Assembly (NCBI GenBank): GCA_902772795.1
Contig: CACYBZ010000341.1
Span: 1-11,199, forward strand
DNA length: 11,199 bases
Direction of reading: 5' to 3'
Source: an uncultured Ruminococcus sp.
GTDB lineage: Bacteria > Bacillota > Clostridia > Oscillospirales > Acutalibacteraceae
Shown here: positions 1 through 11,199 of the stretch, piece after piece
Layout: each line of letters begins with the position of its first letter
Position numbering within the stretch: position 1 is the stretch's first letter
Notes under the pieces: generated by a model
Told to the model about the DNA's origin: nothing
The model's database searches: none
What the model saw: only the letters and a program-made list of their open reading frames with translations
Program-made: the position numbers and the translations under genes

Positions 1-69
1 GGATATTACCAACAAAATGACAATGGCGGATATTACCAACAAAATGACAATGGCGGATATTATCAACAG
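1..69. repeat. 27-bp in-frame tandem repeat, two exact copies and a partial third
   Basis: Bases 1-27 and 28-54 are identical. Bases 55-69 begin a third, slightly diverged copy. Each unit encodes GYYQQNDNG. The array runs into the left edge of the window, so the total copy number is unknown. An in-frame 27-bp unit with exact copies suggests recent expansion by slippage or recombination. Confidence 0.9.
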
Positions 70-441
70 TCTACAAGAGAAACAAAATTTTGTTCAAATT
101 GTGGACAAACTATTGACAAAAATGCTGTAATCTGTCCTAAATGCGGATGCCAAGTTTCACAAATGGCTAACCAAAATCCTATGCCTCAACAAATTATTAT
201 TAATAACTCTAACAATAATGTTGCTAATGCAGTTGCCACAGGCGGTGTTGGTGCTAATCCTAAAAATAAATGGGTTGCCTTTTTGCTTTGCTTTTTTCTT
301 GGTTTCTTGGGGGCACATAAATTTTATGAAGGAAAAGCTATAATGGGAGTTCTGTATCTGTTTACAGGTGGCTTATTTCTTATTGGTGTTATTGTAGATT
401 TGATTATCATACTTTGCCGTCCGAATCCCTATTACATATAG
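1..441 (+). CDS. Zinc-ribbon and TM2-domain membrane protein, 5' end cut off by window edge
   Basis: The reading frame is open from base 1, so the true start lies upstream; 146 residues are visible. Residues 1-23 are a low-complexity Gly/Tyr/Gln/Asn tract built from repeats of GYYQQNDNG. Residues 30-52 form a zinc ribbon with two CxxC pairs (C31/C34 and C45/C48). After an Asn-rich linker (about 55-87) comes a TM2 domain: a hydrophobic helix at about 91-104, the motif GAHKFYEGK, then a second hydrophobic segment at about 115-138 containing the GG...G..VD pattern and ending RPNPYYI. TM2 proteins are small two-helix membrane proteins whose bacterial roles are mostly unknown, so I assign no function. 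The internal ATG at 163 would drop the zinc ribbon and is probably not the start. The gene is convergent with mnmA and is followed by a terminator. Confidence 0.85.
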   Translation, partial: GYYQQNDNGGYYQQNDNGGYYQQSTRETKFCSNCGQTIDKNAVICPKCGCQVSQMANQNPMPQQIIINNSNNNVANAVATGGVGANPKNKWVAFLLCFFLGFLGAHKFYEGKAIMGVLYLFTGGLFLIGVIVDLIIILCRPNPYYI

Positions 442-452
442 TTGTTACTATT

Positions 453-485
453 TTCCCTTGTGTTGTTTTTCACAAGGGAATTTTT
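453..485 (+). terminator. Rho-independent terminator of the TM2 gene
   Basis: A perfect 10-bp stem, TTCCCTTGTG (453-462) with CACAAGGGAA (471-480), encloses an 8-nt loop and is followed by TTTTT (481-485). It starts 11 bases after the TM2 stop codon. The U-run is on the + side only. Read on the - strand it lies just after the mnmA stop but is followed by AATAG, so it is a weaker terminator for mnmA. Confidence 0.9.
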
Positions 486-490
486 CTGTC

Positions 491-1567
491 CTATTGAATT
501 GTTCCTCCACCTACGACATATTCGCTGTCATAAAACACGACTGCCTGTCCTTTGGTAATGGCTCTTTGCTTTTCGTCAAAGATAACTGTCACCGTATCTT
601 CATCAGTAATATGTATGGTTGCTTCTGCTTCTTTCTGACTGTACCGTGTTTTTGCCGTTACTCTCATACCGTCATACGGTTTTTCTACCGCTATCCAGTT
701 CAAATCCGTTGCCGTAAGCCTGTCACTGAACAAATCGCTGTTTTCTCCCAGTCTGACAACATTGTCATACGGATTCTTGTCCAGCACAAATATCGGGTGG
801 GCATAGCTGATTCCCAGACCTTTCCGCTGTCCGATGGTATAGTGAATAATTCCTTTATGTCTGCCCAGAATTGTGCCGTCCTTGTAGACAAAATTGCCTT
901 CTTCCGATTTGATGCCCATCTGTTTTTCCAGAAATCCCGCATAATCGCCGTCTTTGATAAAGCAGATATCCTGACTGTCAGGTTTTCGGGCATTGATAAG
1001 ATGATTTTCCTGTGCTAGCTGTCTTGACTGTTCTTTTGTCATACCACCCAGCGGAAACAGCGTATGTTTCAGCATTTCCTGTGTGAGTACATACAGCACA
1101 TAAGTCTGGTCTTTGGTGCGGTCGGCGGATTTCTTGAGTAAAATTCTGCCGTTGCTGTCTGCTTCTCTTTGCACATAATGTCCTGTGGCGATATAGTCAT
1201 AACCAAGCAGTTTTGCTCTGTCCAGCATTTTGGCAAATTTGATATATCTGTTGCAGTCAATGCAAGGATTGGGTGTTTCACCTTTCTGATAACTTTGTGC
1301 AAATTTTATGATGACTTTTTCTCTGAACTCGTCACCGAAATTGAATACATAATGACGGATACCCAGCTTGTAACATACACTTCTTGCGTCCTCCACGTCT
1401 TCCAGAGAACAGCAGGTTCGTGCACGGTCATGGATTCCGATGTCTTCATTGTCGAAAAGCCGTAAAGTTGCCCCGTCCGTATCATAGCCCTGATTCAGCA
1501 ACAGCAACGCCGATACCGAACTGTCTACCCCTCCGCTCATTCCGACAAGTACTTTTTCTTTCATCAT
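491..1567 (-). CDS. mnmA: tRNA-specific 2-thiouridylase MnmA
   Basis: This enzyme thiolates uridine 34 in the anticodon wobble position of Lys, Glu and Gln tRNAs, using ATP to activate the base and a persulfide relayed from a cysteine desulfurase. The 358-residue product is full length for the family. It has the PP-loop ATP site GMSGGVDSS (residues 9-17), the first catalytic cysteine in NPCIDCNRYIKF (C102), ATGHY at about 127-131, and the second catalytic cysteine in SQDICF (C202). The C-terminal part contains YTIGQRKGLG and is followed by the usual beta-barrel region. Start choice: AGGAG (1573-1577) stands 5 nt before the ATG at 1567 and 8 nt before the adjacent ATG at 1564; either may be used. 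An ATG at 1603 would overlap the upstream stop codon and lacks a site. It lies 25 bp downstream of the peptidase gene, probably in the same transcript. Confidence 0.93.
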   Translation of the reverse strand: MMKEKVLVGMSGGVDSSVSALLLLNQGYDTDGATLRLFDNEDIGIHDRARTCCSLEDVEDARSVCYKLGIRHYVFNFGDEFREKVIIKFAQSYQKGETPNPCIDCNRYIKFAKMLDRAKLLGYDYIATGHYVQREADSNGRILLKKSADRTKDQTYVLYVLTQEMLKHTLFPLGGMTKEQSRQLAQENHLINARKPDSQDICFIKDGDYAGFLEKQMGIKSEEGNFVYKDGTILGRHKGIIHYTIGQRKGLGISYAHPIFVLDKNPYDNVVRLGENSDLFSDRLTATDLNWIAVEKPYDGMRVTAKTRYSQKEAEATIHITDEDTVTVIFDEKQRAITKGQAVVFYDSEYVVGGGTIQ

Positions 1568-1592
1568 TATCACTCCTGCATTTTCTGAAAAA

Positions 1593-3494
1593 TTACCATA
1601 CACTTATTCTTTCGTTTTTGGGAACATACATACCGTCACCCTCTTTTATATCAAATGTACGGTAAAATTCTTCTATTTGCTGTAACGGAACATTGACTCT
1701 GTACTTTGACAGAGAGTGCGTATCACGTTCTATTCTGTTGGTCATGATTTCCTCTGTATATTTTTCTCTGTACAGCGTTGCATAATCGATGAAAAATTGC
1801 CGATAGTCTGCATTTTCCATACTATTCAATATTTCAACACAACATTGTATACCTGTCAAATCTGCGATATCTTCTCCTTTGGTCTGCATCGCATTAAGCT
1901 TTATTCCGTCTTTTTCGCCCTGTTGACTGACAAAATTTTTCAGTTTCGTGACGTTTTCAATATATAATTTTCTGTCTTCCACATTCCACCAACTGGTATA
2001 ATAGCCGTTTTCATCATATTCACTGCCGTTGATATCCAGTGTGTGAGATACTTCATGTGCTACAATGACACCCAGTCCGCTCAGATTTTCTTCAAAAGAA
2101 TTGTTTCTGTCGTATACAGGGGATTGCAGAATACCTGCATTGATAATAATACAATTATTGCCAAAATTGTTATAGGCGTTGATTTCCATTGTATCAAATA
2201 CCAGTTTATCCCGGGAATATTCGGATTTCAACAGTCTGTTTTGTTCAAGGGCTTTTTGCCTCAGACAATTTTCACAGTTTTCAATATAGGAATTTTCATT
2301 GCTTATTTTTGCATTACTGTAATCTGTCAGCGTCTGTGAATAAGCTACGACCACCATTAACTGTTCAAGTTTGTTTTTAGCTTTCTTTTTGGTTTTGTCA
2401 GATAAATAGGTCAGTCTGTCTATTTTAGAACGATAGACTGCCTTGATTTTTTCTGCCATATCGGTGACGTTTCGGACATCTTCTTCTGTAATATTTTGTT
2501 TCAGATATCCTTTGGTAAGAACATCGTTCATATAATACCGGGCTATATTACAGAAATTGTCTGTTGCGTTTTCGGAAACTCCACGGGTATTTCTGATGAT
2601 TCTGCTCAGAACCGTAACTGTCAGATAGGCTTTCAGATTTTCCGTATTTTCTTCTGTGAACAGCTTTTCGTTAAGCAAATCCATGTACTTGTCATTACAC
2701 CGTATCTTACAGTCATCGGAGTCATAACCTGTATTTTTGAGTATTTTTTCAATGTCTATGTTAAAAATAAAATTTCCGCCTGAGTAAAGTGTCTGTTTGG
2801 TAAGCATCTGACTTTCGGCAAAACATTGTGCGACTTTTGATTCCAAATCAACGGCTTTTTCAATCATCGCAGAAAGTTCCTCTTTACTGTAAATATCACA
2901 TTCCGAAAGCAAATTTTCAAGTTTTTGGGAATAGACTTTCTTCATTTCTTCGTTGTACAACTGCGGATTTTTGGTCAGGTTTCTTCCGGATATAGATACG
3001 GCATTGAGTTCAAGTACATAAGAATTCTTTCCGTTGGCTATTTCAAAATCCAAAAGTCCGTTATACAGTAACAGTTTTTCGTCACTGTACAGATTCTCCA
3101 TATCTTTCAACGTTTTCGCCTGATTGATTTTATCGGTATAGCTTCTGAGAACAGCATTATTTTCATCAGACTGATTTGTCAGAAACTGTTTGTACAGAAG
3201 CAACAGTTTTTGTTCCTCCTGCGATAAATCCTTTTCTGACGATAATGTTTCAAAATAGTTCTGGTAAAATTCCGTTATTTTGTTCTCGCCGTCAGCATAA
3301 CACACATCGGGATTTTCAGCGGAAACATTTACCGAATCCAACCATTCTTTATTTACGGCAGTATAAAAATCATCTTTCAGAGCAACAGATACTTCTGACG
3401 TTGATGAACTGTTGTCTGTCGGTTCGGGTGTACACGATGTCAGCGTAACCGCTACTGTCAGAACGGCAACAATCACAGCAAAAATTTTTTTCAT
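1593..3494 (-). CDS. pepO: M13-family (neprilysin/PepO-like) zinc metallopeptidase, predicted lipoprotein
   Basis: This 633-residue protein has the full M13 architecture. A short basic N-terminus and hydrophobic core end in the lipobox LTSC (C21), so it should be lipid-anchored on the outer face of the membrane. DDFYTAVNKEWL (41-52) is the family's N-terminal signature. The catalytic half carries INAYNNF (438-444), NAGILQSP (452-459), zinc motif HEVSH (H480, E481, H484), third ligand and partner in GEDIADL (E541, D545), and DTHSLSKYRVN (591-601). The C-terminus ends in DIKEGDGMYVP and ISVW. All catalytic residues are present. M13 enzymes cleave oligopeptides of limited size; the real substrate is unknown. 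RBS GAGGT lies 7 nt before the ATG. It sits 33 bp after the LRR gene and 25 bp before mnmA, with no terminator visible between. The symbol pepO is by family resemblance only. Confidence 0.93.
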   Translation of the reverse strand: MKKIFAVIVAVLTVAVTLTSCTPEPTDNSSSTSEVSVALKDDFYTAVNKEWLDSVNVSAENPDVCYADGENKITEFYQNYFETLSSEKDLSQEEQKLLLLYKQFLTNQSDENNAVLRSYTDKINQAKTLKDMENLYSDEKLLLYNGLLDFEIANGKNSYVLELNAVSISGRNLTKNPQLYNEEMKKVYSQKLENLLSECDIYSKEELSAMIEKAVDLESKVAQCFAESQMLTKQTLYSGGNFIFNIDIEKILKNTGYDSDDCKIRCNDKYMDLLNEKLFTEENTENLKAYLTVTVLSRIIRNTRGVSENATDNFCNIARYYMNDVLTKGYLKQNITEEDVRNVTDMAEKIKAVYRSKIDRLTYLSDKTKKKAKNKLEQLMVVVAYSQTLTDYSNAKISNENSYIENCENCLRQKALEQNRLLKSEYSRDKLVFDTMEINAYNNFGNNCIIINAGILQSPVYDRNNSFEENLSGLGVIVAHEVSHTLDINGSEYDENGYYTSWWNVEDRKLYIENVTKLKNFVSQQGEKDGIKLNAMQTKGEDIADLTGIQCCVEILNSMENADYRQFFIDYATLYREKYTEEIMTNRIERDTHSLSKYRVNVPLQQIEEFYRTFDIKEGDGMYVPKNERISVW

Positions 3495-3527
3495 ATATCT
3501 TACCTCTATTACTTGATTTGAACAACA

Positions 3528-4340
3528 TTATCTGACTTTACAGGAAATATCGTGTTTCTGGGCATAAGTTTCGGCATATGAGCCCTTTGAACAGTGAATC
3601 TCCAGATTGGGACAGTCTTTAAAAGCATTATCTTCAATCAGTGCTACACTGTCAGGTATAGAAACACTTTCTAAATTGGTACAATAGCCGAAAGCCTCTG
3701 TTCCGATAGAGGTAACACCGTCAGGTATATCGACGCTTTTCAGATTGAAACAGCCATCAAAAGCACATTTTCCGATAGAGGTAACACCTTTTGGTATGTC
3801 GATACTTTTTAATCTTTGGCAATCGTAAAAAGTGTAGTCGCTGACAGCGGTAACACCGTCGGGAATAGAAAAGGACGTTATGTGATGACAATACTGAAAA
3901 GCACCTTTTCCGATATACTTCACACCGCTGTCAGGGAGAGTGATATTCTGCATTGTACAGTGTGCAAAAGCATAGTCGCCGATAGAAATAAGACTGGTGC
4001 AGTTGTGTATAAAAACAATATCAAAATAACATTGATAGAAAGCCTTTGCGTCTATACCGGTTATGCCGTCCTGAATGTAGATTGTTCCTATGTTTTCTTC
4101 TTTGAGGTGATTACTCTCCATAAATGTTGTTGGTATATCTGCATTGCCTGTTACTTCCAGTGTTAAATTGGCTGTTTCGTTGGATAAAGTGTAGGTTATT
4201 TCCGTTTGTGTGGGTTGTGTTTCCTGTTGTGGAAAAACAGAAGCAGAATTGGTTGTGTCAGTTGCCGTACACCTTGTCATACTTCCGAAAACCGTCAGAG
4301 TACTTGCCAGAAACATCAGAATGATTATCTTTTTCAGCAT
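3528..4340 (-). CDS. BspA-like leucine-rich-repeat (LRR_5) exported protein
   Basis: The 270-residue protein starts with a clear signal sequence: MLKK, then a hydrophobic run to about residue 19. The nearby cysteine (C24) is preceded by MTR, which does not fit a lipobox, so I predict secretion rather than lipid anchoring. A Thr/Gln/Ser-rich linker (about 25-48) and a strand-rich stretch (49-85) follow. From about 86 to 245 come roughly 23-residue repeats of the pattern SIxIPxGVTSIGxxAFxxCxxL, typical of LRR_5/BspA proteins. No anchor (LPXTG, SLH, C-terminal helix) is visible. Such proteins act in binding to host or matrix partners in some bacteria; here the partner is unknown. RBS AGGAGG is 5 nt before the ATG, and a good promoter lies at 4374-4403. 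It is the first gene of a likely LRR-peptidase-mnmA transcript. No catalytic domain is seen. Confidence 0.87.
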   Translation of the reverse strand: MLKKIIILMFLASTLTVFGSMTRCTATDTTNSASVFPQQETQPTQTEITYTLSNETANLTLEVTGNADIPTTFMESNHLKEENIGTIYIQDGITGIDAKAFYQCYFDIVFIHNCTSLISIGDYAFAHCTMQNITLPDSGVKYIGKGAFQYCHHITSFSIPDGVTAVSDYTFYDCQRLKSIDIPKGVTSIGKCAFDGCFNLKSVDIPDGVTSIGTEAFGYCTNLESVSIPDSVALIEDNAFKDCPNLEIHCSKGSYAETYAQKHDISCKVR

Positions 4341-4353
4341 TTTTTCCTCCTAT

Positions 4354-4372
4354 ACCGATAATCCTTATCAGT
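4354..4372 (-). promoter_or_regulatory. Dyad at the transcription start of the LRR gene (possible operator or leader hairpin)
   Basis: On the - strand ACTGATAA, GGA, TTATCGGT form an 8-bp dyad (one G-T pair in RNA) with a 3-nt centre. It begins one base after the -10 box and covers the expected +1 near 4367. As only part would be transcribed from that +1, a protein-binding site is more likely than an RNA hairpin. The function is inferred. Confidence 0.45.
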
Positions 4373-4373
4373 G

Positions 4374-4403
4374 ATTATAGCACAGAAAAAGGAACATTGT
4401 CCA
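4374..4403 (-). promoter_or_regulatory. Sigma-A-type promoter of the LRR-peptidase-mnmA group
   Basis: On the - strand the -35 box is TGGACA (4398-4403, one mismatch to TTGACA), the spacer is 18 bp, and the -10 box is a perfect TATAAT (4374-4379) preceded by TGC, an extended -10. The predicted start near 4367 gives a leader of about 27 nt carrying AGGAGG. No comparable promoter is visible in the 33-bp and 25-bp gaps downstream, so it probably also drives the peptidase and mnmA. Confidence 0.8.
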
Positions 4404-4523
4404 TAGATAATAACCACCGTCAGTAATACTTTTGCAGACCTGTTTTATTTATCAAGGTTAAAAAAATGTATTTTTCTTTTTTTATTTCATTTTGTAACAG
4501 TATCCTGTTATCTGCGAAAACAA

Positions 4524-5384
4524 CTATACAAAAATATTACCCGCAATTCCGTTTTCCAAATCGTCAATAGAGTAGATATGTTCCATTACATCGAATGTTT
4601 CTTCAAGATTATTTCTGGCACTTTTCCAGCCCTGACCATCTGTAAACCATACAAAGGTAAATCCGTTGATACTTTCCGCTTCCTGTGCAAGTTGTTTGTA
4701 ACTTCTGGCAGTTTCGTTTAATTTTGACCCTCCGCCTGCATAGAAATTCGTTTCAACAGCGTAAATCATGTGTTCCGTACAGACAACAAAATCAAAACGC
4801 TTTTCCGTTTTATTATTGTTGGAAATCGAAGAAAGATTCAGTCCCCATTTGTCTGTAATTTCGTGTATGTACATTTCTTTGAAATAATTTTTGTTTTTGA
4901 TAAAACCTGCTTTCTGAATATAGCTTTCCACAAGGTTTTCCATCAAATGACCGCCACGGTTTTTTCGTGCGTTGGAATCCAGTCCCGTTTCGATACCCGT
5001 AGCGTAGTCTACAAGATTACTGATAATATGATGAGAAAGTAAATCGAATAATCCTGTTTTCCGCATGAAAACTTTATATTGTTCCAAGGGATAATTGGCA
5101 TTGCCAAAATGATAACAATATACTCCCTCTGTATCTGTTGCGTAAATTTCCTTTGTCCGTATCGCAAGCAGTAAAGGAATACATTTCAGCGTTTCGGGGT
5201 ACTTCTTTATGACGGCTTCAAAATCAGACTCTATATTTTGGGAACCGATAAGGCTATTGAGAATATTCAGTTCTACTTTTACCGATTCAATATTTTTGTA
5301 TATTTTTTCAAAATCCGTATAATAGCCATAATCCGCAATACTTCTGCGGAATTTTGAAAGCCATACTGAAAAATTTCGTTCCAT
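4524..5384 (-). CDS. DpnII-family type II restriction endonuclease (predicted GATC)
   Basis: The 286-residue protein resembles the DpnII endonuclease family, which cuts unmethylated GATC. Recognisable blocks are GLDSNARKNRGGHLMENLVE (134-153), RFDFVV (196-201), YAVETNFYAGGGSKLNETA (208-226) with RSYKQLA just after it, and FVWFTDGQGW (244-253). D198 and E211 in FDF and ETN are likely PD-(D/E)XK metal ligands, with Asn in the usual Lys position; that assignment is mine. Length matches the family, and no frameshift is seen. Start choice: GGAG (5393-5396) is 8 nt before the ATG at 5384; a GTG at 5393 shares a base with that site and cannot be used with it. The gene begins 16 bp after the methylase stop, so the protective enzyme is transcribed first. 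GATC is nearly absent from the window, which supports the specificity. No clear terminator follows. Confidence 0.9.
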   Translation of the reverse strand: MERNFSVWLSKFRRSIADYGYYTDFEKIYKNIESVKVELNILNSLIGSQNIESDFEAVIKKYPETLKCIPLLLAIRTKEIYATDTEGVYCYHFGNANYPLEQYKVFMRKTGLFDLLSHHIISNLVDYATGIETGLDSNARKNRGGHLMENLVESYIQKAGFIKNKNYFKEMYIHEITDKWGLNLSSISNNNKTEKRFDFVVCTEHMIYAVETNFYAGGGSKLNETARSYKQLAQEAESINGFTFVWFTDGQGWKSARNNLEETFDVMEHIYSIDDLENGIAGNIFV

Positions 5385-5400
5385 GATAACCACTCCATTA

Positions 5401-6282
5401 TTAATTGCTGATTAAAAGTTCCTGAATGATACCTCTGTTATTCCCACGACTGTTAATCATTCGTTTGGCTGAAACACGTTCAATCTGATAGTTCTGATAT
5501 AAAACATCAAAGAAATCATCGTTTTCATCAGTATTTTTAGGATCGGAATTACTGATTAAGACAGTCGCCTGTTTTTTGCAAATGCTGTCGACAAATTTTC
5601 CGAGCAATACCTGTTCGTCATCATCAAATCCGTTCTCCGTGTAAGAAGTAAAAGAGGCTGTTCTGGTGAGCGGTCGGTAAGGCGGATCTATATAGACAAA
5701 AGTACGGCTGTCTATAAAATCATAACAGGCTCTGTAATCACCGCATTGTATGGTAACATTCTGTAACAGCCGGCTTACCTTACGAAGATTTTCACCATCG
5801 CATATAACGGGCTTTTTGTAAGAACCCATAGGTACATTGAAAACCCCTTTACGGTTGACACGGTACAGACCGTTAAAACACGTTTTATTCAAAAAAATAA
5901 ATAATGTTGCCTGTTCCAGTTTGTTTTTCTCATCAGCATTGTTTTTAAGACTGTTAAAACGGTCACGCTTTTCTGAAAAAATCTTCTTTCTGTGTGGTGT
6001 ATCCGCCTGTAAGAACAGATGCTGATATTGTTCCAGCTGTTCAATTAATTCTTCCACATGACACTGTATCTGCTGATAGGTGTTTATCAATTCAGTATTG
6101 ATATCGTTTATCAACACTTCCTCACAATGAAAGTGCTCCAGAATATCAAATAATACAGCCCCTCCTCCAACAAAGGGTTCACAGTATTTTTGTATGTTAG
6201 CGGGATATTTATCCCTGATTATGTCCAAAAGCTGACTTTTTCCGCCTGCCCACTTTACAAAAGGTCGGGCTTCCTTAATCAT
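5401..6282 (-). CDS. D12-class adenine-N6 DNA methyltransferase (Dam/DpnM type, predicted GATC)
   Basis: The 293-residue protein should transfer a methyl group from S-adenosylmethionine to the N6 of adenine in GATC, protecting host DNA from the adjacent endonuclease. Motifs come in the alpha-class order: PFVKWAGGK (7-15, motif X), EPFVGGGAVLF (35-45, motif I, cofactor binding), a central target-recognition region including LNKTCFNGLYRVNRKGVFN (131-149) and VPMGSYK, then catalytic DPPY (199-202, motif IV), SFTSYTENGF (210-219) and ISNSDP (243-248). Length is normal for Dam/DpnM. RBS AAGGTG lies 5 nt before the ATG. It starts 121 bp after argF, beyond the arg terminator. Two of only three GATC sites in the window fall in this gene, at 5685-5688 (GAT-CCG of DPPY) and 5541-5544 (GAT-CCT of NSDP). 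It is closer to DpnM than to a solitary Dam because of its endonuclease partner. Confidence 0.95.
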   Translation of the reverse strand: MIKEARPFVKWAGGKSQLLDIIRDKYPANIQKYCEPFVGGGAVLFDILEHFHCEEVLINDINTELINTYQQIQCHVEELIEQLEQYQHLFLQADTPHRKKIFSEKRDRFNSLKNNADEKNKLEQATLFIFLNKTCFNGLYRVNRKGVFNVPMGSYKKPVICDGENLRKVSRLLQNVTIQCGDYRACYDFIDSRTFVYIDPPYRPLTRTASFTSYTENGFDDDEQVLLGKFVDSICKKQATVLISNSDPKNTDENDDFFDVLYQNYQIERVSAKRMINSRGNNRGIIQELLISN

Positions 6283-6340
6283 ATAATCACCTTAAATATC
6301 AATTCTGTCATAATCGTCAAAAAGACGTTTGTTTTTTGGG

Positions 6341-6381
6341 TAATAAAAGTCTATGGGAACACAAAAAATGTACTCCCATAG
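6341..6381 (-). terminator. Probable terminator of the arg operon
   Basis: An 8-bp perfect stem, CTATGGGA (6351-6358) with TCCCATAG (6374-6381), has a 15-nt loop. On the - strand it is followed by ACTTTTATTA (6350-6341), a moderate U-rich tail. It begins 22 nt after the argF stop. On the + strand the stem is followed by A residues, so it works only for argF. Read-through into the methylase gene is possible because the tail is imperfect. Confidence 0.65.
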
Positions 6382-6403
6382 TAAAAAAATCATTCCGTAT
6401 CCG

Positions 6404-7312
6404 TCAGTCTTTCATCATTGTCACAAGAACAGCTTTCTGTGCATGTAATCTGTTTTCTGCTTCGTCAAAAATCTCGTTGGCGTGTGCTTCCAGAACTTCC
6501 GCTGTAATTTCTTCGCCACGGTGTGCAGGCAGACAATGCAATACCATACAGTCCTTATTGGTATAGCTCATCAGTTCGCTGTCAACACAGAAACCCTTGA
6601 ACGCTTTTGCCCTGTCTTTGGCTTCCTGTTCCTGACCCATTGATGCCCATACATCGGTATAGACAACATCGGCATTCTGTACCGCTTCTTTCGGAGAATG
6701 ATATAAACCGAATTTATCCCCATAGGCTTTGGCAAATTCAAGAATTTCTTTCGGCGGTTCGTAACCTTCAGGACAAGCGATAGTCACACTCATTCCTGTT
6801 TTCAGTCCGCCGACAATGAGAGAGTTTGCCATATTGTTGCCGTCACCGACAAAACACATTTTCAGTCCCTCAAGTGTACCTTTGTATTCTCTTATCGTCA
6901 TCAGGTCTGCCATTACCTGACAAGGGTGACAAAAATCTGTCAGTCCGTTGATAATCGGTATTGTGCCGTGTTCTGCGAGTGCTTCCACTTCTGCCTGTTC
7001 AAAGGTTCTTATCATGATACCATCAATAAAACGGGAAAGTACTCTTGCCGTATCTTCTACGGGTTCACCTCTGCCAATCTGCATATCGTTCGCCGACAGA
7101 AACAGCGGATATCCGCCCAGCTGATACATTCCCACTTCAAATGATACTCTCGTTCTTGTGGAGGCTTTCTGGAATATCATGCCCAGTGTTTTTCCTGCCA
7201 GTAACTTATGTTCAATTCCGTGTTTCTGTTCATATTTGAGCTGGTCAGCAAGATTCAGCATTTCGATAATTTCTTTTCCGCTGTAATCCAGCAGTTTCAA
7301 AAAATGTTTCAT
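6404..7312 (-). CDS. argF: Ornithine carbamoyltransferase
   Basis: This enzyme joins carbamoyl phosphate to ornithine to give citrulline, the sixth step of arginine synthesis, in the cytoplasm. The 302-residue product is full length. Diagnostic motifs are STRTRVSFE (51-59, carbamoyl phosphate binding), HPCQ (129-132), DVWASMGQE (220-228) and HCLPAHRGEE (259-268, ornithine site with the reactive Cys). Start choice: ATG at 7312 gives MKHFLKLLDYS, matching the family. A TTG at 7318 lies 5 nt after AAGGAG, and the ATG lies 11 nt after it, so TTG initiation (two extra residues) cannot be excluded. The gene starts 19 bp after argD stops and is the last of the arg operon. No arcA or arcC is present, so the context favours the biosynthetic rather than the catabolic enzyme. 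Confidence 0.96.
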   Translation of the reverse strand: MKHFLKLLDYSGKEIIEMLNLADQLKYEQKHGIEHKLLAGKTLGMIFQKASTRTRVSFEVGMYQLGGYPLFLSANDMQIGRGEPVEDTARVLSRFIDGIMIRTFEQAEVEALAEHGTIPIINGLTDFCHPCQVMADLMTIREYKGTLEGLKMCFVGDGNNMANSLIVGGLKTGMSVTIACPEGYEPPKEILEFAKAYGDKFGLYHSPKEAVQNADVVYTDVWASMGQEQEAKDRAKAFKGFCVDSELMSYTNKDCMVLHCLPAHRGEEITAEVLEAHANEIFDEAENRLHAQKAVLVTMMKD

Positions 7313-7331
7313 GTACAACGTATCTCCTTAA

Positions 7332-8504
7332 TTACAATATTGTTCTTTCAAAAATAGCAAGACCTTTTTCAATTTCTTCCTTGCTGATGTTCAGGGGCGG
7401 TAAAAAACGAATCAGGTTTTTTGCGGTCAATACCAGCAGACCGTTTTCAACACACTTTGTTGCCACTTCTTTGGCATTGTCTTTTTCCAGCACAATGCCT
7501 ATCATCAGTCCCATTCCTCTGATTTCTGCTACACCTTTCATCTTGGAAAGCTTATAACGGATATAGTCACCTTTAATACTGACTTCTTTCAGAAATTCTT
7601 CGTTAGCAACTCTTTTCAGCACTTCCAATGCTCCCGCACAGGCAACAGGATTTCCGCCATAGGTTGTACCATGTGTTCCCGGGGTCATCACATCTTTCAG
7701 CTTTTCATTGCACAGACAGATACCCATGGGCAGACCTCCGCCAATACCTTTTGCCGATGTGACAATATCAGGGTTTATACCGAACTGCTCATAACAATAG
7801 AATGTACCTGTCCGACCTGCTCCTGTCTGTACTTCGTCAATGATAAGCAACAACTCGTTTTCCTTACAGTATTCTGCCAGTTGTGCAACAAACGCCTTGT
7901 CAAGCGGATTGACACCACCTTCACCCTGAATCAGTTCTATCATTACCGCACAGGTATCATTGTCAACTTTTGCTTTTACACTTTCCATGTCATTGGCTTT
8001 GGCAAAACGGAAACCTTCGGTGAAAGGAAAAAAGTAATTATGAAAAACGTCCTGACCTGTTGCCGAAAGTGTGGTTACTGTTCTTCCGTGAAATGAATTT
8101 TCAAGTGTAACGATAACGGTTCTTTCTTTGCTGTATTTTTCAAAGCTGTATTTTCTTGCCAGTTTAATCGCACATTCATTGGCTTCTGCACCGCTGTTGG
8201 CAAAAAAGACTTTGCTGAAAGAAGTTATCTTACACAATTTTTCCGCCAGTTCTGTCTGTAACGGATTATAATATAAATTGGAAATATGCTGTAATTTGCC
8301 TGCCTGTTCAGATACGGCTTTTGTCCAGCCGTCATCACTGTAGCCAAGACAATTTACCCCTATTCCGCTGGTAAAATCAATATATTCTTTTTCGTTGATG
8401 TCCCACGCTGTAGCCCCTTTTCCTTTGACCAGTGCCACAGGGAAACGTCCATAGGTATTCATAATATATTGACTGTCATTTTCTTTTATCTGTTCAAATG
8501 TCAT
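7332..8504 (-). CDS. argD: Acetylornithine aminotransferase
   Basis: A pyridoxal-phosphate enzyme that moves an amino group from glutamate to N-acetylglutamate semialdehyde to give N-acetylornithine (step four). The 390-residue product is a class III aminotransferase: SGAEANE (104-110, phosphate contact), SFHGRT (137-142), EGGVNP (195-200), DEVQTGAGRTG (223-233, with the Asp that pairs to the ring nitrogen), SAKGIGGGLPMG (250-261, Schiff-base lysine K252) and HGTTYGGNP (278-286). Start choice: GAGGT (8513-8517) is 8 nt before the ATG at 8504 but only 2 nt before the ATG at 8510, so 8504 is preferred. It overlaps the end of the acetyltransferase gene by 11 bp, which suggests translational coupling. 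The enzyme may also serve lysine synthesis, as some ArgD proteins do. Confidence 0.95.
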   Translation of the reverse strand: MTFEQIKENDSQYIMNTYGRFPVALVKGKGATAWDINEKEYIDFTSGIGVNCLGYSDDGWTKAVSEQAGKLQHISNLYYNPLQTELAEKLCKITSFSKVFFANSGAEANECAIKLARKYSFEKYSKERTVIVTLENSFHGRTVTTLSATGQDVFHNYFFPFTEGFRFAKANDMESVKAKVDNDTCAVMIELIQGEGGVNPLDKAFVAQLAEYCKENELLLIIDEVQTGAGRTGTFYCYEQFGINPDIVTSAKGIGGGLPMGICLCNEKLKDVMTPGTHGTTYGGNPVACAGALEVLKRVANEEFLKEVSIKGDYIRYKLSKMKGVAEIRGMGLMIGIVLEKDNAKEVATKCVENGLLVLTAKNLIRFLPPLNISKEEIEKGLAIFERTIL

Positions 8505-8955
8505 TACCATCTACCTCTGAAAGTTTTTCATTATCATATTCATAGGAATAGACAAATATATCTTCACGTTTCTGAAATCCCATACTGCTCCAGAATCCCT
8601 GTCCTGCGGAATTGTCGCAATAGGTAAATATATGTGTTTTGAGAATGCCTTCTCCTGCCAGTTTTTCAAGAGCGGTGGTTGCCAGTTTCTTAGCGATACC
8701 TTTTCTGCGGTATTGGGGCAACACCGCCATATGATGAATATATCCTCGTCTGCCGTCATGTCCTGCCAGCACCGTCCCTATGATTTTTCCGTCTGTAACG
8801 GCGACCTGACTCAGTCCTTTGTTTCGGTGAAGATAGCGTTCGATTTCTTCCTTTCGGTCTGCCTGCGACAACGCCCTTTTTGACGTTATCTGCCACATAG
8901 CGAAAACTTCATCGTAATCTTCATTTAACATTGCTCTTATCTGTACTTCGGACAT
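8494..8955 (-). CDS. GNAT-family N-acetyltransferase within the arg operon
   Basis: A 153-residue single-domain GNAT protein. Residues 5-45 form the variable N-terminal part. Strand-rich VAVTDGKIIGTVLAGHDG (51-68) is followed by IHHMAVLP and the acetyl-CoA loop QYRRKGIA (81-88, the Q/RxxGxG/A motif), then helix KKLATTALEKL. N115 and FWSSMGF (121-127) are the usual C-terminal features. It resembles the small YpeA/RimI-like GNATs; the substrate cannot be read from sequence. RBS GAGGTGG is 4 nt before the ATG. It lies 45 bp after argB and overlaps argD by 11 bp, so it is an integral operon member. Because no argJ or argA is present here, glutamate acetylation (a short NAGS) is a reasonable hypothesis; protein or small-molecule acetylation unrelated to arginine is the alternative. 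Confidence 0.88.
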   Translation of the reverse strand: MSEVQIRAMLNEDYDEVFAMWQITSKRALSQADRKEEIERYLHRNKGLSQVAVTDGKIIGTVLAGHDGRRGYIHHMAVLPQYRRKGIAKKLATTALEKLAGEGILKTHIFTYCDNSAGQGFWSSMGFQKREDIFVYSYEYDNEKLSEVDGNDI

Positions 8956-9000
8956 AGTTCCACCTCGAAAATTTATTCATCAGTTATGATTGTCGGACGA

Positions 9001-9858
9001 TTACCAGAACATGGTTCCGATACCCTCATCGGAAAACAGTTCTATCAGAATAGAATGTTCAATTCTGCCGTCAATGATATGCGTGCGTCTTACGCCACGT
9101 CTGACTGCTTCGACACAACAGTCTATTTTTGGTATCATACCGCCACTGATAATTCCCGAACGTTTGAGCATAGGCACTTCGCTGACATTGACTACGGGAA
9201 TTAATGTATTTTCATCATCTTTATCTCTTAACAGACCTTTGATATCTGTCATCAGAATCAGTTTACAAGCCCCTAATTTTGCCGCAATTCTTGCAGCGGC
9301 AACATCGGCATTGATATTATAGACATTGCCGTCATAGCCACCTGCCACTGTGGAAATTATCGGCACATAGCCACTGTGAATGGTATCGTTGATAATTCTT
9401 TCATTGACTTCTCTGATTTCACCGACAAAGCCCAGATCTTCGGCTGACGGTAATTTATCCGCCATCAGCATTTTTCCGTCAAGACCGCATAAACCCATAG
9501 CTTTTCCGCCGTGTTCATTGAGATTCTGCACAAGGCTTTTATTGACTTTTCCTGCCAGTACCATCTGAACAATATCCATGGTTTCTTTATCGGTGACACG
9601 CATACCGTTGATGAACTTGCTTTCCTTGCCCGTTTTTTTGAGCATATCGCTGATTTCAGGGCCACCGCCGTGAACCAGCACAACATTAACACCTACCAGT
9701 TGCATAAGAACAATGTCACTCATGACGGCACTTTTCAGCTTGGGACTTATCATAGCATTTCCGCCGTATTTGACAACAATGGTCTGTCCGGCATATTTCT
9801 GTATGTACGGCAAAGCCTGCACCAGCACATGGGCTCTTTCTTCGTTTGAAATATCCAT
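9001..9858 (-). CDS. argB: Acetylglutamate kinase, arginine-inhibited type
   Basis: Phosphorylates N-acetylglutamate with ATP, step two of arginine synthesis and usually the controlled step. The 285-residue product has KYGGNAM (30-36), HGGGP (63-67, substrate loop), NINAD (181-185), TDIKGLL (204-210) and GGMIPK (239-244). A 20-odd-residue N-terminal helix (EERAHVLVQALPYIQKYAG) precedes the core, and the C-terminus has HSILIELFSDEGIGTM (268-283). In characterised kinases these two features go with hexamers inhibited by arginine, whereas the shorter E. coli enzyme lacks the helix; inhibition here is inferred. The RBS AAAGGA is unusually far (about 12 nt) from the ATG, and no alternative start lies closer, so translation may be modest. 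The gene follows argC after 143 bp holding a hairpin repeat. Confidence 0.96.
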   Translation of the reverse strand: MDISNEERAHVLVQALPYIQKYAGQTIVVKYGGNAMISPKLKSAVMSDIVLMQLVGVNVVLVHGGGPEISDMLKKTGKESKFINGMRVTDKETMDIVQMVLAGKVNKSLVQNLNEHGGKAMGLCGLDGKMLMADKLPSAEDLGFVGEIREVNERIINDTIHSGYVPIISTVAGGYDGNVYNINADVAAARIAAKLGACKLILMTDIKGLLRDKDDENTLIPVVNVSEVPMLKRSGIISGGMIPKIDCCVEAVRRGVRRTHIIDGRIEHSILIELFSDEGIGTMFW

Positions 9859-9887
9859 TGAAATTTTATATCCTTTCTCGTGTTTGG

Positions 9888-9962
9888 TTTAAGGGCTTTG
9901 CCCTTAAAAATCCCACAAGGGGCTTTGCCCCTTGACCCCATGAACTTTTTGAAAAAAGTTCA
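9888..9962. repeat. Triple-hairpin intergenic repeat between argC and argB
   Basis: Three perfect inverted repeats lie in a row. First, TTTAAGGGC/GCCCTTAAA (9888-9896, 9900-9908), 9-bp stem with loop TTT. Second, CAAGGGGC/GCCCCTTG (9916-9923, 9927-9934), 8-bp stem with loop TTT. Third, TGAACTTTT/AAAAGTTCA (9941-9949, 9954-9962), 9-bp stem with loop TGAA. Spacers are 7 and 6 nt and share a CCCA core. The first two stems are variants of one another. No U-run directly follows a stem on the - strand, so they are not ordinary terminators. The pattern looks like a dispersed repeat of the kind I recall from Ruminococcaceae-type genomes, but this window has only one copy. The rest of the 143-bp gap shows only the argB RBS. 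Confidence 0.85.
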
Positions 9963-10001
9963 ATCAAAAACTTGTGGAAAATCTGCAACAGCAAATTTTC
10001 A

Positions 10002-11036
10002 TTAAAAAGCAGGGGGAACAATTTCCAGACCTGTTTTTTCGTCTATACCGAATACAATATTCATGTTCTGAATAGCCTGTCCCGCTGCACCTTTTACCAT
10101 GTTGTCGATAGCCGATACCGCAATCAACGTTTGTGTTCTGGTGTCAACATGGAGGGAAACATCTCCGAAATTGGAATATTTGATATGGTGAATGTCAGCA
10201 ACCTGCCCTTTGGGCAATACTCTGACGAAGTACTCATCAGCGTAGAAATCTTCATACACGTTACGGATTTTTTCTTCGGTTATGCCGCCTTTGAGAGGAG
10301 CATAAACGGTAGACAAGATTCCCCTGTTGACGGGCAGAAGATGGGGAACAAACGTAATTTTTACGGGTTGGTTGGCAAGATGGGATAACGTCTGTTCAAT
10401 TTCAGGCGTGTGTCGGTGACAAGCTACTTTGTACGGGTGAAAACTTTCGTTAAGGTCGGTAAAGTGGGTATTCTGCGAAAGTCCTCTGCCTGCTCCCGTA
10501 GCACCGCTTTTACAGTCGGCAATAATTCCTTTTGTTCCGACAAGTCCTTTGGCAACGGCAGGACCTATTGCCAGAGGAACACCTGTGGTATAGCAACCGG
10601 GATTGGCAATGGTCTTTTTACCTTTTATATTTTCTCTGAAAAATTCAGGCAAGGCATATACGGAATTCTGATGTAATGCTTTGTCGGTATATTCTCCGCC
10701 ATACCATTCTTTATAGTCGTCCTCGTTTTCCAGTCGGAAATCCGCCCCCAAATCAATAAAGATTTTATCCTTATCAAAACAGGTCTTTGCCAGTTCCTGT
10801 GATAAACCGTGTGGCAGTGCTGCGAATATCACGTCACATTTTTCGACTACATCATCAGCTTTTTCACATACCATATCGTTAAGCTGATAATAGGACGGAT
10901 AGACTTCGCTGATAGCTTTTCCCTCAAAGCTAACGGAACTGATAGCTTTGATTTCTGCTTTCGGGTGTGTCATGAGTAGGCGTACCAGTTCAGCTCCTGC
11001 GTAACCTGTTGCACCGATAATTCCTGCTTTTATCAT
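10002..11036 (-). CDS. argC: N-acetyl-gamma-glutamyl-phosphate reductase
   Basis: Reduces N-acetylglutamyl phosphate with NADPH to the semialdehyde, step three. The 344-residue product is full length for the long (type 1) form. It begins IIGATGYAGAELVRLL (6-21, dinucleotide-binding loop). Other landmarks are ALPHGLS (73-79), IDLGADFRL (94-102), the catalytic cysteine in NPGCYTTG (C148), KSGATGAGR (176-184) and HRHTPEIEQ (207-215, catalytic histidine region). The RBS is weak: only AAAGAG about 12 nt before the ATG. It is the first arg gene visible. It starts 58 bp after the end of an unrecognised gene on the same strand, and I cannot find a convincing promoter or ArgR box in that gap, so the transcript may begin inside or before the upstream gene. 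Confidence 0.96.
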   Translation of the reverse strand: MIKAGIIGATGYAGAELVRLLMTHPKAEIKAISSVSFEGKAISEVYPSYYQLNDMVCEKADDVVEKCDVIFAALPHGLSQELAKTCFDKDKIFIDLGADFRLENEDDYKEWYGGEYTDKALHQNSVYALPEFFRENIKGKKTIANPGCYTTGVPLAIGPAVAKGLVGTKGIIADCKSGATGAGRGLSQNTHFTDLNESFHPYKVACHRHTPEIEQTLSHLANQPVKITFVPHLLPVNRGILSTVYAPLKGGITEEKIRNVYEDFYADEYFVRVLPKGQVADIHHIKYSNFGDVSLHVDTRTQTLIAVSAIDNMVKGAAGQAIQNMNIVFGIDEKTGLEIVPPAF

Positions 11037-11072
11037 TTGTGTTTCATCTCTTTCGTTTATTTTTCAAGACTG

Positions 11073-11083
11073 CCATACTATGG
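11073..11083. promoter_or_regulatory. Short perfect palindrome upstream of argC
   Basis: CCATA-C-TATGG is an 11-base palindrome lying 37 bp before the argC start codon, in the only gap upstream of the arg operon. It does not match the ArgR consensus (TGAAT...ATTCA). It could be an operator half or chance; an 11-base palindrome is not rare enough alone to decide. Confidence 0.25.
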
Positions 11084-11094
11084 GTTATCATTGG

Positions 11095-11199
11095 TCAGTT
11101 TTCATGATTTTCGTTATTCTGACACGAAACATCAATGTCACTTATATATTGCTGAGCATTGGACTGTATGATTTCTTCCAGTTTTTCAGAATAGGGTAA
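11095..11199 (-). CDS. 3' end of an unrecognised gene, cut by window edge
   Basis: On the - strand a frame is open from the right edge to a TGA at 11095-11097, giving the last 34 residues, ending in DVSCQNNENHEN. The tail is polar and rich in Asn, Gln and Glu, with a possible helix (PYSEKLEEIIQSNAQQYI). I do not recognise the family. It is not the C-terminus expected of ArgJ. It points the same way as argC and ends 58 bp before it. An open frame of 34 codons is short, so this could also be non-coding. Confidence 0.5.
   Translation of the reverse strand, partial: LPYSEKLEEIIQSNAQQYISDIDVSCQNNENHEN

What the first reader, a model, noticed from the sequence alone, without database searches (positions are those of the whole stretch)
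1..11199. GATC is almost absent from the whole window
Reading every line for the tetramer I find only three GATC sites: 5541-5544, 5685-5688 and 9435-9438. At about 40% G+C a random 11.2 kb would hold about 40. The trinucleotide ATC is common (roughly two hundred by eye), so the shortage is of G before ATC. The shortage covers arg genes, mnmA and the peptidase, not just the restriction genes, so it looks like genome-wide avoidance from long exposure to a GATC-cutting system. This would make the DpnII-type pair a long-term resident, not a recent arrival.
Basis: partly seen in the sequence, partly recalled or inferred. Interest (0 to 1): 0.75.

Follow-up and report, generated by a model that had tools for sequence, protein, structure and literature searches.

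The report
Genus-wide loss of GATC sites
This bacterium and its close relatives have almost erased the four-letter word GATC from their DNA, the expected scar of DNA-cutting defence enzymes, and in one relative the scar is sharpest although its copy of the cutter gene has been largely deleted.

Summary
In detail: exactly three GATC (5541, 5685, 9435) against 37.7 +/- 6.4 in dinucleotide shuffles and 25.2 +/- 4.1 in synonymous-codon shuffles. It is genome-wide and genus-wide: whole-genome WWGATCWW counts are 2.5-12% of WWGTACWW in the 6 genomes of the genus; median 128% in 54 other relatives. GATC is not alone: CGCG, GCGC, GGCC, CCGG and CTAG are also scarce. A full-length DpnII/DpnM-type pair is present. 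Synteny dates it better: G002 keeps the methylase at the same argF site, with neighbour-like synonymous divergence, plus a 5' remnant of dpnII. Best account: long serial exposure to GATC-cutting type II systems whose endonucleases are repeatedly lost. G002 has 2 GATC in 355 kb of ORFs where neutral drift since its split from G003 would give about 260, so purging lasted until very recently there, or an unidentified cutter is active. The phenomenon is known (Rusinov 2015); the depth and the deletion remnant are the additions.

The parts
4524..5393 (-). DpnII-family type II restriction endonuclease, full length
   Evidence: PF04556 E 1.4e-107, profile 1-275 of 278; shares the invariant columns of an 11-sequence alignment; no solved-structure match at E <= 0.1. 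Cutting of GATC is inferred from family.
5401..6282 (-). Dam-family (DpnM-like) adenine methyltransferase; holds 2 of the 3 GATC of the window
   Evidence: TIGR00571 291 bits, cut-off 115; best solved structure 2dpm, E 1.1e-51; GATC positions.
5541..5544 (.). GATC site inside dam
5685..5688 (.). GATC site inside dam
9435..9438 (.). GATC site inside argB, not GATC in the 5 other genomes of the genus
3528..4340 (-). LRR_5 (BspA-type) protein next to dpnII, not found at this site in the other five genomes
   Evidence: PF13306; no match in the argF stretches of G001-G005
6404..7318 (-). argF, conserved left border of the insertion
   Evidence: OTCace domains; 89-96% identical in the five others
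1593..3494 (-). M13 peptidase gene, right border; directly follows argF in G001, G003, G005
   Evidence: PF01431, PF05649; order

Best explanation
GATC has been purged from the whole genus by long, serial exposure to type II restriction systems that cut GATC. Shown: the genus-wide depletion, and several DpnII-family systems or remnants in the genus. Inferred: that cutting is the cause. The likely mechanism is that a GATC left unmethylated is now and then cut by the resident endonuclease, so mutations that remove GATC, many of them synonymous, are favoured. The window's DpnII-Dam pair is one such system; it probably sat between argF and the M13 gene already in the ancestor of G000 and G002. G000 keeps it, G002 lost most of dpnII and kept dam, G003 lost both or never had them. 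G001 and G005 hold decayed DpnM-DpnA-DpnII systems at two other places. GATC is one of at least five 4-bp palindromes purged in the window's genome, so the genus carries the record of many type II systems that came and went.
For: Depletion in the window and own genome and in all 6 genomes of the genus: GATC/GTAC in WW contexts 0.025-0.124, against a median of 1.28 in 54 other relatives, 1 of 54 (G041) as low. Full-length DpnII and Dam in the window. G002: dam at the same site, DpnII 5' remnant matching 64 of 80 bases; dam differs at 0.52 of 4-fold sites, neighbours 0.38-0.57. Truncated DpnII beside DpnM and truncated DpnA in G001 and G005. A truncated NgoPII-type (GGCC) endonuclease beside a C5 methylase in G003, and Eco47II-type (GGNCC) pairs: in G003 by Pfam, in G001 by the same gene order and similar start. 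The avoided set differs between lineages, as expected from changing R-M repertoires. Six sampled relatives with Dam but no DpnII have ordinary to mildly low GATC, o/e 0.44-0.81.
Against: Depth does not follow the intact gene: G002 and G003 are the most depleted. Some relatives with no DpnII or Dam found are also low (G009, G011, G016, G025, o/e 0.07-0.13; G041). G020, with an intact DpnM-DpnA-DpnII, is low by Markov ratio (0.22) but not against its GTAC and CATG counts (141 against 111 and 198). Outside the genus Dam presence does not predict depletion (P 0.20). Of 21 loci with a Dam relative in other bacteria, the 11 with a DpnII hit span o/e 0.00-0.91 and the 10 without span 0.11-0.98. Cutting was not tested.
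Confidence: 0.72

Rival explanations
1. An agent other than the known DpnII, Sau3AI/MutH and DpnI families, or systems carried by other strains of the population, is removing GATC in G002 and G003 at present; the window's pair is incidental to the depth of avoidance.
For: 2 GATC in 354,879 bases of G002 ORFs; synonymous drift to 4-fold p 0.013 would give 33 and to 0.126 would give 263, and G002-G003 differ at 0.31. No MutH match in 60 genomes, no DpnI over the cut-off, no D12 methylase in G003. ACGT, CGCG, GCGC and GGCC are also close to zero in G002, although only partial or few other methylases were found there.
Against: A very recent deletion of dpnII in G002 explains its data, and the remnant is little decayed. 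G003 is 76% complete, so a system could be missed. Families without a profile were not searched.
Confidence: 0.25
2. One reading: this one pair, long resident, alone caused the avoidance.
For: Pair intact and probably as old as the G000/G002 split; G004 and G005 are less depleted than G000 by sampled Markov ratio.
Against: G001, which lacks the pair at argF, is about as depleted (0.10 against 0.17; 0.079 against 0.099); G001 and G005 had other DpnII systems; argF sites of G001, G004 and G005 show no trace of the pair.
Confidence: 0.1
3. No restriction: a mutational or compositional bias against short palindromes, or a cost of Dam methylation itself.
For: Several palindromes are low together; CTAG is low in many relatives.
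Against: The set is lineage-specific: ACGT nearly absent in G002, G003, G004 but Karlin ratio 0.82-0.95 in G000, G001, G005; CATG low in G001, G004, G005 only; GTAC, AGCT and TGCA 0.75-1.10 in all six. Dam without DpnII outside the genus goes with o/e 0.44-0.81. Keeping dinucleotides or codon usage and protein does not remove the effect.
Confidence: 0.04

Closest known systems
Restriction-site avoidance and traces of lost type II systems (Rusinov et al. 2015, PMC4687349)
   Same: Site of an orthodox type II system underrepresented in the host; avoidance also in relatives that lack the system; the paper's threshold is Kr 0.78.
   Different: Depth: Karlin ratio for GATC 0.15 in the window, 0.28 in the own sample, 0.03 in G002; a partly deleted endonuclease gene is caught in place. 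The paper's own lowest values were not looked up.
DpnII-type R-M systems (GATC; DpnM methylase 2dpm)
   Same: Adjacent Dam-family methylase and DpnII-family endonuclease.
   Different: Two-gene form in the window, without the second methylase (DpnA-like, PF01555) seen beside DpnM in G001, G005 and G020. That three-gene layout is that of the pneumococcal system by recall.

Membership tests
DpnII-type R-M system | DpnII-family endonuclease, full length | tested here: met
   PF04556 1-275 of 278; invariant columns shared
DpnII-type R-M system | Adjacent Dam-family adenine methylase | tested here: met
   TIGR00571 over cut-off; DPPY motif present; 2dpm relative
DpnII-type R-M system | Cuts unmethylated GATC and methylates it | not testable with these tools
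   Needs enzyme assay or methylome
Restriction-site avoidance (Rusinov 2015) | Karlin ratio of the site below 0.78 | tested here: met
   0.15 window, 0.28 own sample
Restriction-site avoidance (Rusinov 2015) | An orthodox type II system for the site in the genome or in close relatives | tested here: met
   Window pair; remnants in G001, G002, G005
Restriction-site avoidance as a clock for the resident pair | Depth of avoidance follows presence of the intact endonuclease | tested here: not met
   G002 and G003 more depleted than G000; not a requirement in Rusinov 2015, which reports avoidance without the gene

The most novel reading that the evidence does not exclude
In G002 and G003 an agent other than the known DpnII, MutH/Sau3AI and DpnI families is at present removing GATC, together with ACGT, CGCG, GCGC and GGCC, almost to zero (23 GATC in 507,502 bases of G002 against 1539 expected, 18 of them in two contigs found through methylase matches), so the restriction pressure on such a lineage is set by the pool of systems in its population rather than by its own genome.
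Probability: 0.25. Interest if true: 0.65.

Novelty: new member of a known kind. Interest (0 to 1): 0.42.

Why it matters
Site avoidance is used to judge how long an R-M system has been resident. This genus shows the limit of that: depth of avoidance does not follow the intact pair, while synteny and a deletion remnant do give a minimum age. G002 also gives a clock: with almost no GATC and most of dpnII gone, it would regain sites fast under neutrality, so the loss is very recent or another cutter is active, which strain genomes can decide. In these genomes GATC density also seems to mark recently acquired stretches.

Tried and rejected
GATC as the only avoided palindrome: rejected. Dating the pair by avoidance: rejected, since G001, G002 and G003 are as depleted or more. 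Sau3AI/MutH as a cutter: 0 of 60 genomes, own included. DpnI: 3 of 60 weak matches, 0 over the cut-off. A D12 methylase in G003 or G041: none in either. A DpnII remnant in G004:C30: no tblastn match to DpnII, Dam or DpnA queries (ORFs of one locus). C5-methylase loci as GATC systems: of those typed, one has a truncated NgoPII-type and one an Eco47II-type endonuclease. Dam presence against depletion over 60 genomes: P 0.005 with the genus, 0.20 without it. Literature: 3 searches. Rusinov 2015 was read in part (abstract, sections 15 and 19, part 1 of 2 of the Discussion); every other paper was seen only in listings. In the listings of those 3 searches I saw no paper on GATC avoidance in this group.

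In one search, 7 of 20 own contigs were all N but counted in the length; one search corrects this. One search covers 28 of 31 family and 10 of 23 order genomes, of which 3 (G030, G031, G036) gave no readable sample. Of the 18 readable own contigs, 3 were picked because they carry methylases, so its 59 of 343 leans upwards. In one search three rows (G017, G022, G052) were cut from the wrong strand and are meaningless; I use only the well-aligned rows and the G000-G002 grouping. The drift simulation left out L184 and L211, and its ORFs need not all be genes. The tree is unrooted.
Full report
OBSERVATION. The window has 3 GATC at exactly the places given. Expected numbers are 39.2 (base composition), 37.8 (dinucleotides), 35.3 (maximal-order Markov), 37.69 +/- 6.35 (200 dinucleotide shuffles) and, within the ten genes, 25.2 +/- 4.1 (1000 synonymous-codon shuffles, lowest 14). 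ATC occurs 205 times, 3 of them after G. CGCG and GCGC are absent and GGCC (1), CTAG (1) and CCGG (8) are low as well, while GTAC and CATG are near expectation. In the codon shuffles 0 of 1000 reached the observed low for GATC, GGCC, GCGC, CGCG, CCGG, TCGA and TTAA.

THE GENES. 4524-5393(-) is a full-length DpnII-family endonuclease (PF04556 E 1.4e-107) that shares the invariant columns of an 11-sequence alignment. 5401-6282(-) is a Dam-family methylase (TIGR00571) whose best solved relative is 2dpm, the DpnII methylase. The flanks are argF and an M13 peptidase, with an LRR_5 protein next to the endonuclease. That the pair acts on GATC is inferred from family.

GENOME AND GENUS. The window is the whole contig C341 of a 2.24 Mb assembly of 480 contigs, 84.6% complete and 6.6% contaminated. 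Evenly picked own contigs, 13 of 20 readable, give 29 GATC against 229 expected in 65,208 bases; 15 of the 29 are in two contigs, L016 and L027. Six genomes of the genus are held. Whole-genome counts of WWGATCWW, then WWGTACWW, then WWCATGWW: G000 42, 423, 651; G001 43, 544, 130; G002 16, 652, 733; G003 19, 366, 482; G004 98, 793, 131; G005 57, 507, 162. GATC/GTAC is 0.025-0.124 in the genus, median 1.28 in the other 54 relatives, and as low in 1 of those 54, G041. Against the geometric mean of both controls the genus spans 0.023-0.304 and 5 of 54 others fall within that. The other avoided words differ by lineage: ACGT is nearly missing in G002, G003, G004; CATG is low in G001, G004, G005; CGCG is low in all six and GCGC in all but G004. 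The fetched G002 stretches, 507,502 bases, hold 23 GATC against 1539 expected, 29 ACGT against 1148, 6 CGCG against 476, 10 GCGC against 530 and 40 GGCC against 805; 18 of the 23 GATC are in L184 and L211, two contigs found through methylase matches.

THE LOCUS ACROSS THE GENUS. The unrooted tree from 1479 aligned residues groups G002 with G003, G001 with G005, and splits G000, G002, G003 from G001, G004, G005, each with support 1.0. After argF, G004 has mnmA; G001, G003 and G005 have the M13 gene; G002 has dam, then M13; G000 has dam, DpnII, LRR, then M13. The 122 bases between dam and M13 in G002 hold an ATG frame whose peptide matches the DpnII N-terminus; 64 of 80 bases equal the window's, and intact DpnII proteins from unnamed sources, P0123-P0125, match its start closely. 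So G002 has lost most of dpnII. dam differs between G000 and G002 at 0.52 of 4-fold sites and its neighbours at 0.38-0.57, which fits descent from one copy in their ancestor. The 5 Dam proteins nearest to the window's in the public set are itself, P0002 (75%), P0003 (73%, identical to the G002 protein as listed), P0004 and P0005; all further hits listed are 70% or less. G001 and G005 carry DpnM with truncated DpnA and DpnII, with unlike flanking ORFs; G020, of another genus, has the three genes with a full-length DpnII. The DpnM proteins of G001 and G005 are 78% identical although the two genomes differ at only 0.036 of 4-fold sites in the arg region, so these are probably separate arrivals.

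WHAT THE COMPARISON SAYS. If depth of avoidance measured the age of the resident pair, G000 should be the most depleted. It is not: sampled Markov ratios are G000 0.17, G001 0.10, G002 0.03, G003 0.04, G004 0.35, G005 0.31. In stretches with at most one GCGC or CGCG the densities per kb are G000 0.35, G001 0.23, G002 0.026, G003 0.027, G005 0.083 (12 kb only), and G004 had no such stretch (samples not chosen alike). In 354,879 bases of G002 reading frames there are 2 GATC; random synonymous replacement to a 4-fold divergence of 0.013 would give 33, to 0.126 would give 263, and G002 and G003 differ at 0.31 over both branches. Purging therefore continued in G002 until very recently. A very recent deletion of dpnII explains this; so would another cutter. 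DpnII, MutH and DpnI profiles find nothing over the cut-off in G002 or G003, and D12 methylase finds only dam in G002 and nothing in G003; G003 is 76% complete.

OUTSIDE THE GENUS. Depletion with no DpnII or Dam found occurs: G009, G011, G016 and G025 at o/e 0.07-0.13 (profiles). The six sampled genomes with Dam over the cut-off and no DpnII have o/e 0.44-0.81. G020, with DpnII, has 0.22 by Markov ratio but no shortage against its own GTAC and CATG. In 21 loci of other bacteria with a Dam relative, the 11 with a DpnII hit span 0.00-0.91 and the 10 without 0.11-0.98. So neither gene alone predicts avoidance, which is compatible with residence time mattering but does not prove it.

LITERATURE. 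Rusinov et al. 2015 (PMC4687349; abstract, sections 15 and 19, and part 1 of 2 of the Discussion read) report avoidance in about half of 1774 orthodox type II cases, in all 45 cases of widespread systems, and in 43.3% of 1930 cases where only another strain of the species has the system. The present case is of that kind, at great depth.

VERDICT. Synteny does that better. I rate it a deep example of a known kind.

Noticed in passing
L049 1456-2367 (G002 dam); P0003: The G002 Dam, left without its endonuclease, has R in motif I (FVGRG) where the well-aligned relatives have G or A; it may be decaying. GATC is absent from the stretch L173 that holds it.
   Followed up: partly
L054 1486-3297 (G001), L051 625-2325 (G005): DpnM-DpnA-DpnII remnants with DpnA cut short and the DpnII N-terminus missing, at unlike places in two genomes that differ little.
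   Followed up: partly
L172 2777-4229 (G003): Truncated NgoPII-type endonuclease and a C5 methylase sit between argH-like and argC-side genes of the same arg cluster.
   Followed up: partly
L178 1284-3049 (G003), L179 3836-5636 (G001): C5 methylase next to an Eco47II-type endonuclease in G003; similar start and gene order in G001, not scanned. GGWCC is low in all six genomes.
   Followed up: partly
G041 (whole genome): Only 5 WWGATCWW in about 2.0 Mb, against 78 WWGTACWW and 408 WWCATGWW, with no DpnII, Dam, MutH or DpnI found.
   Followed up: no
L184 4449-7372 (G002 C78): GATC-rich stretch with an N6/N4 methylase and a SMODS nucleotidyltransferase next to it, perhaps a defence island.
   Followed up: no
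L152, L153: Bacteroidales stretches with a Dam relative, no DpnII hit, and low GATC (o/e 0.11 and 0.17).
   Followed up: no
P0121: A 453-aa DpnII-family protein in which the N-terminal part appears repeated.
   Followed up: no
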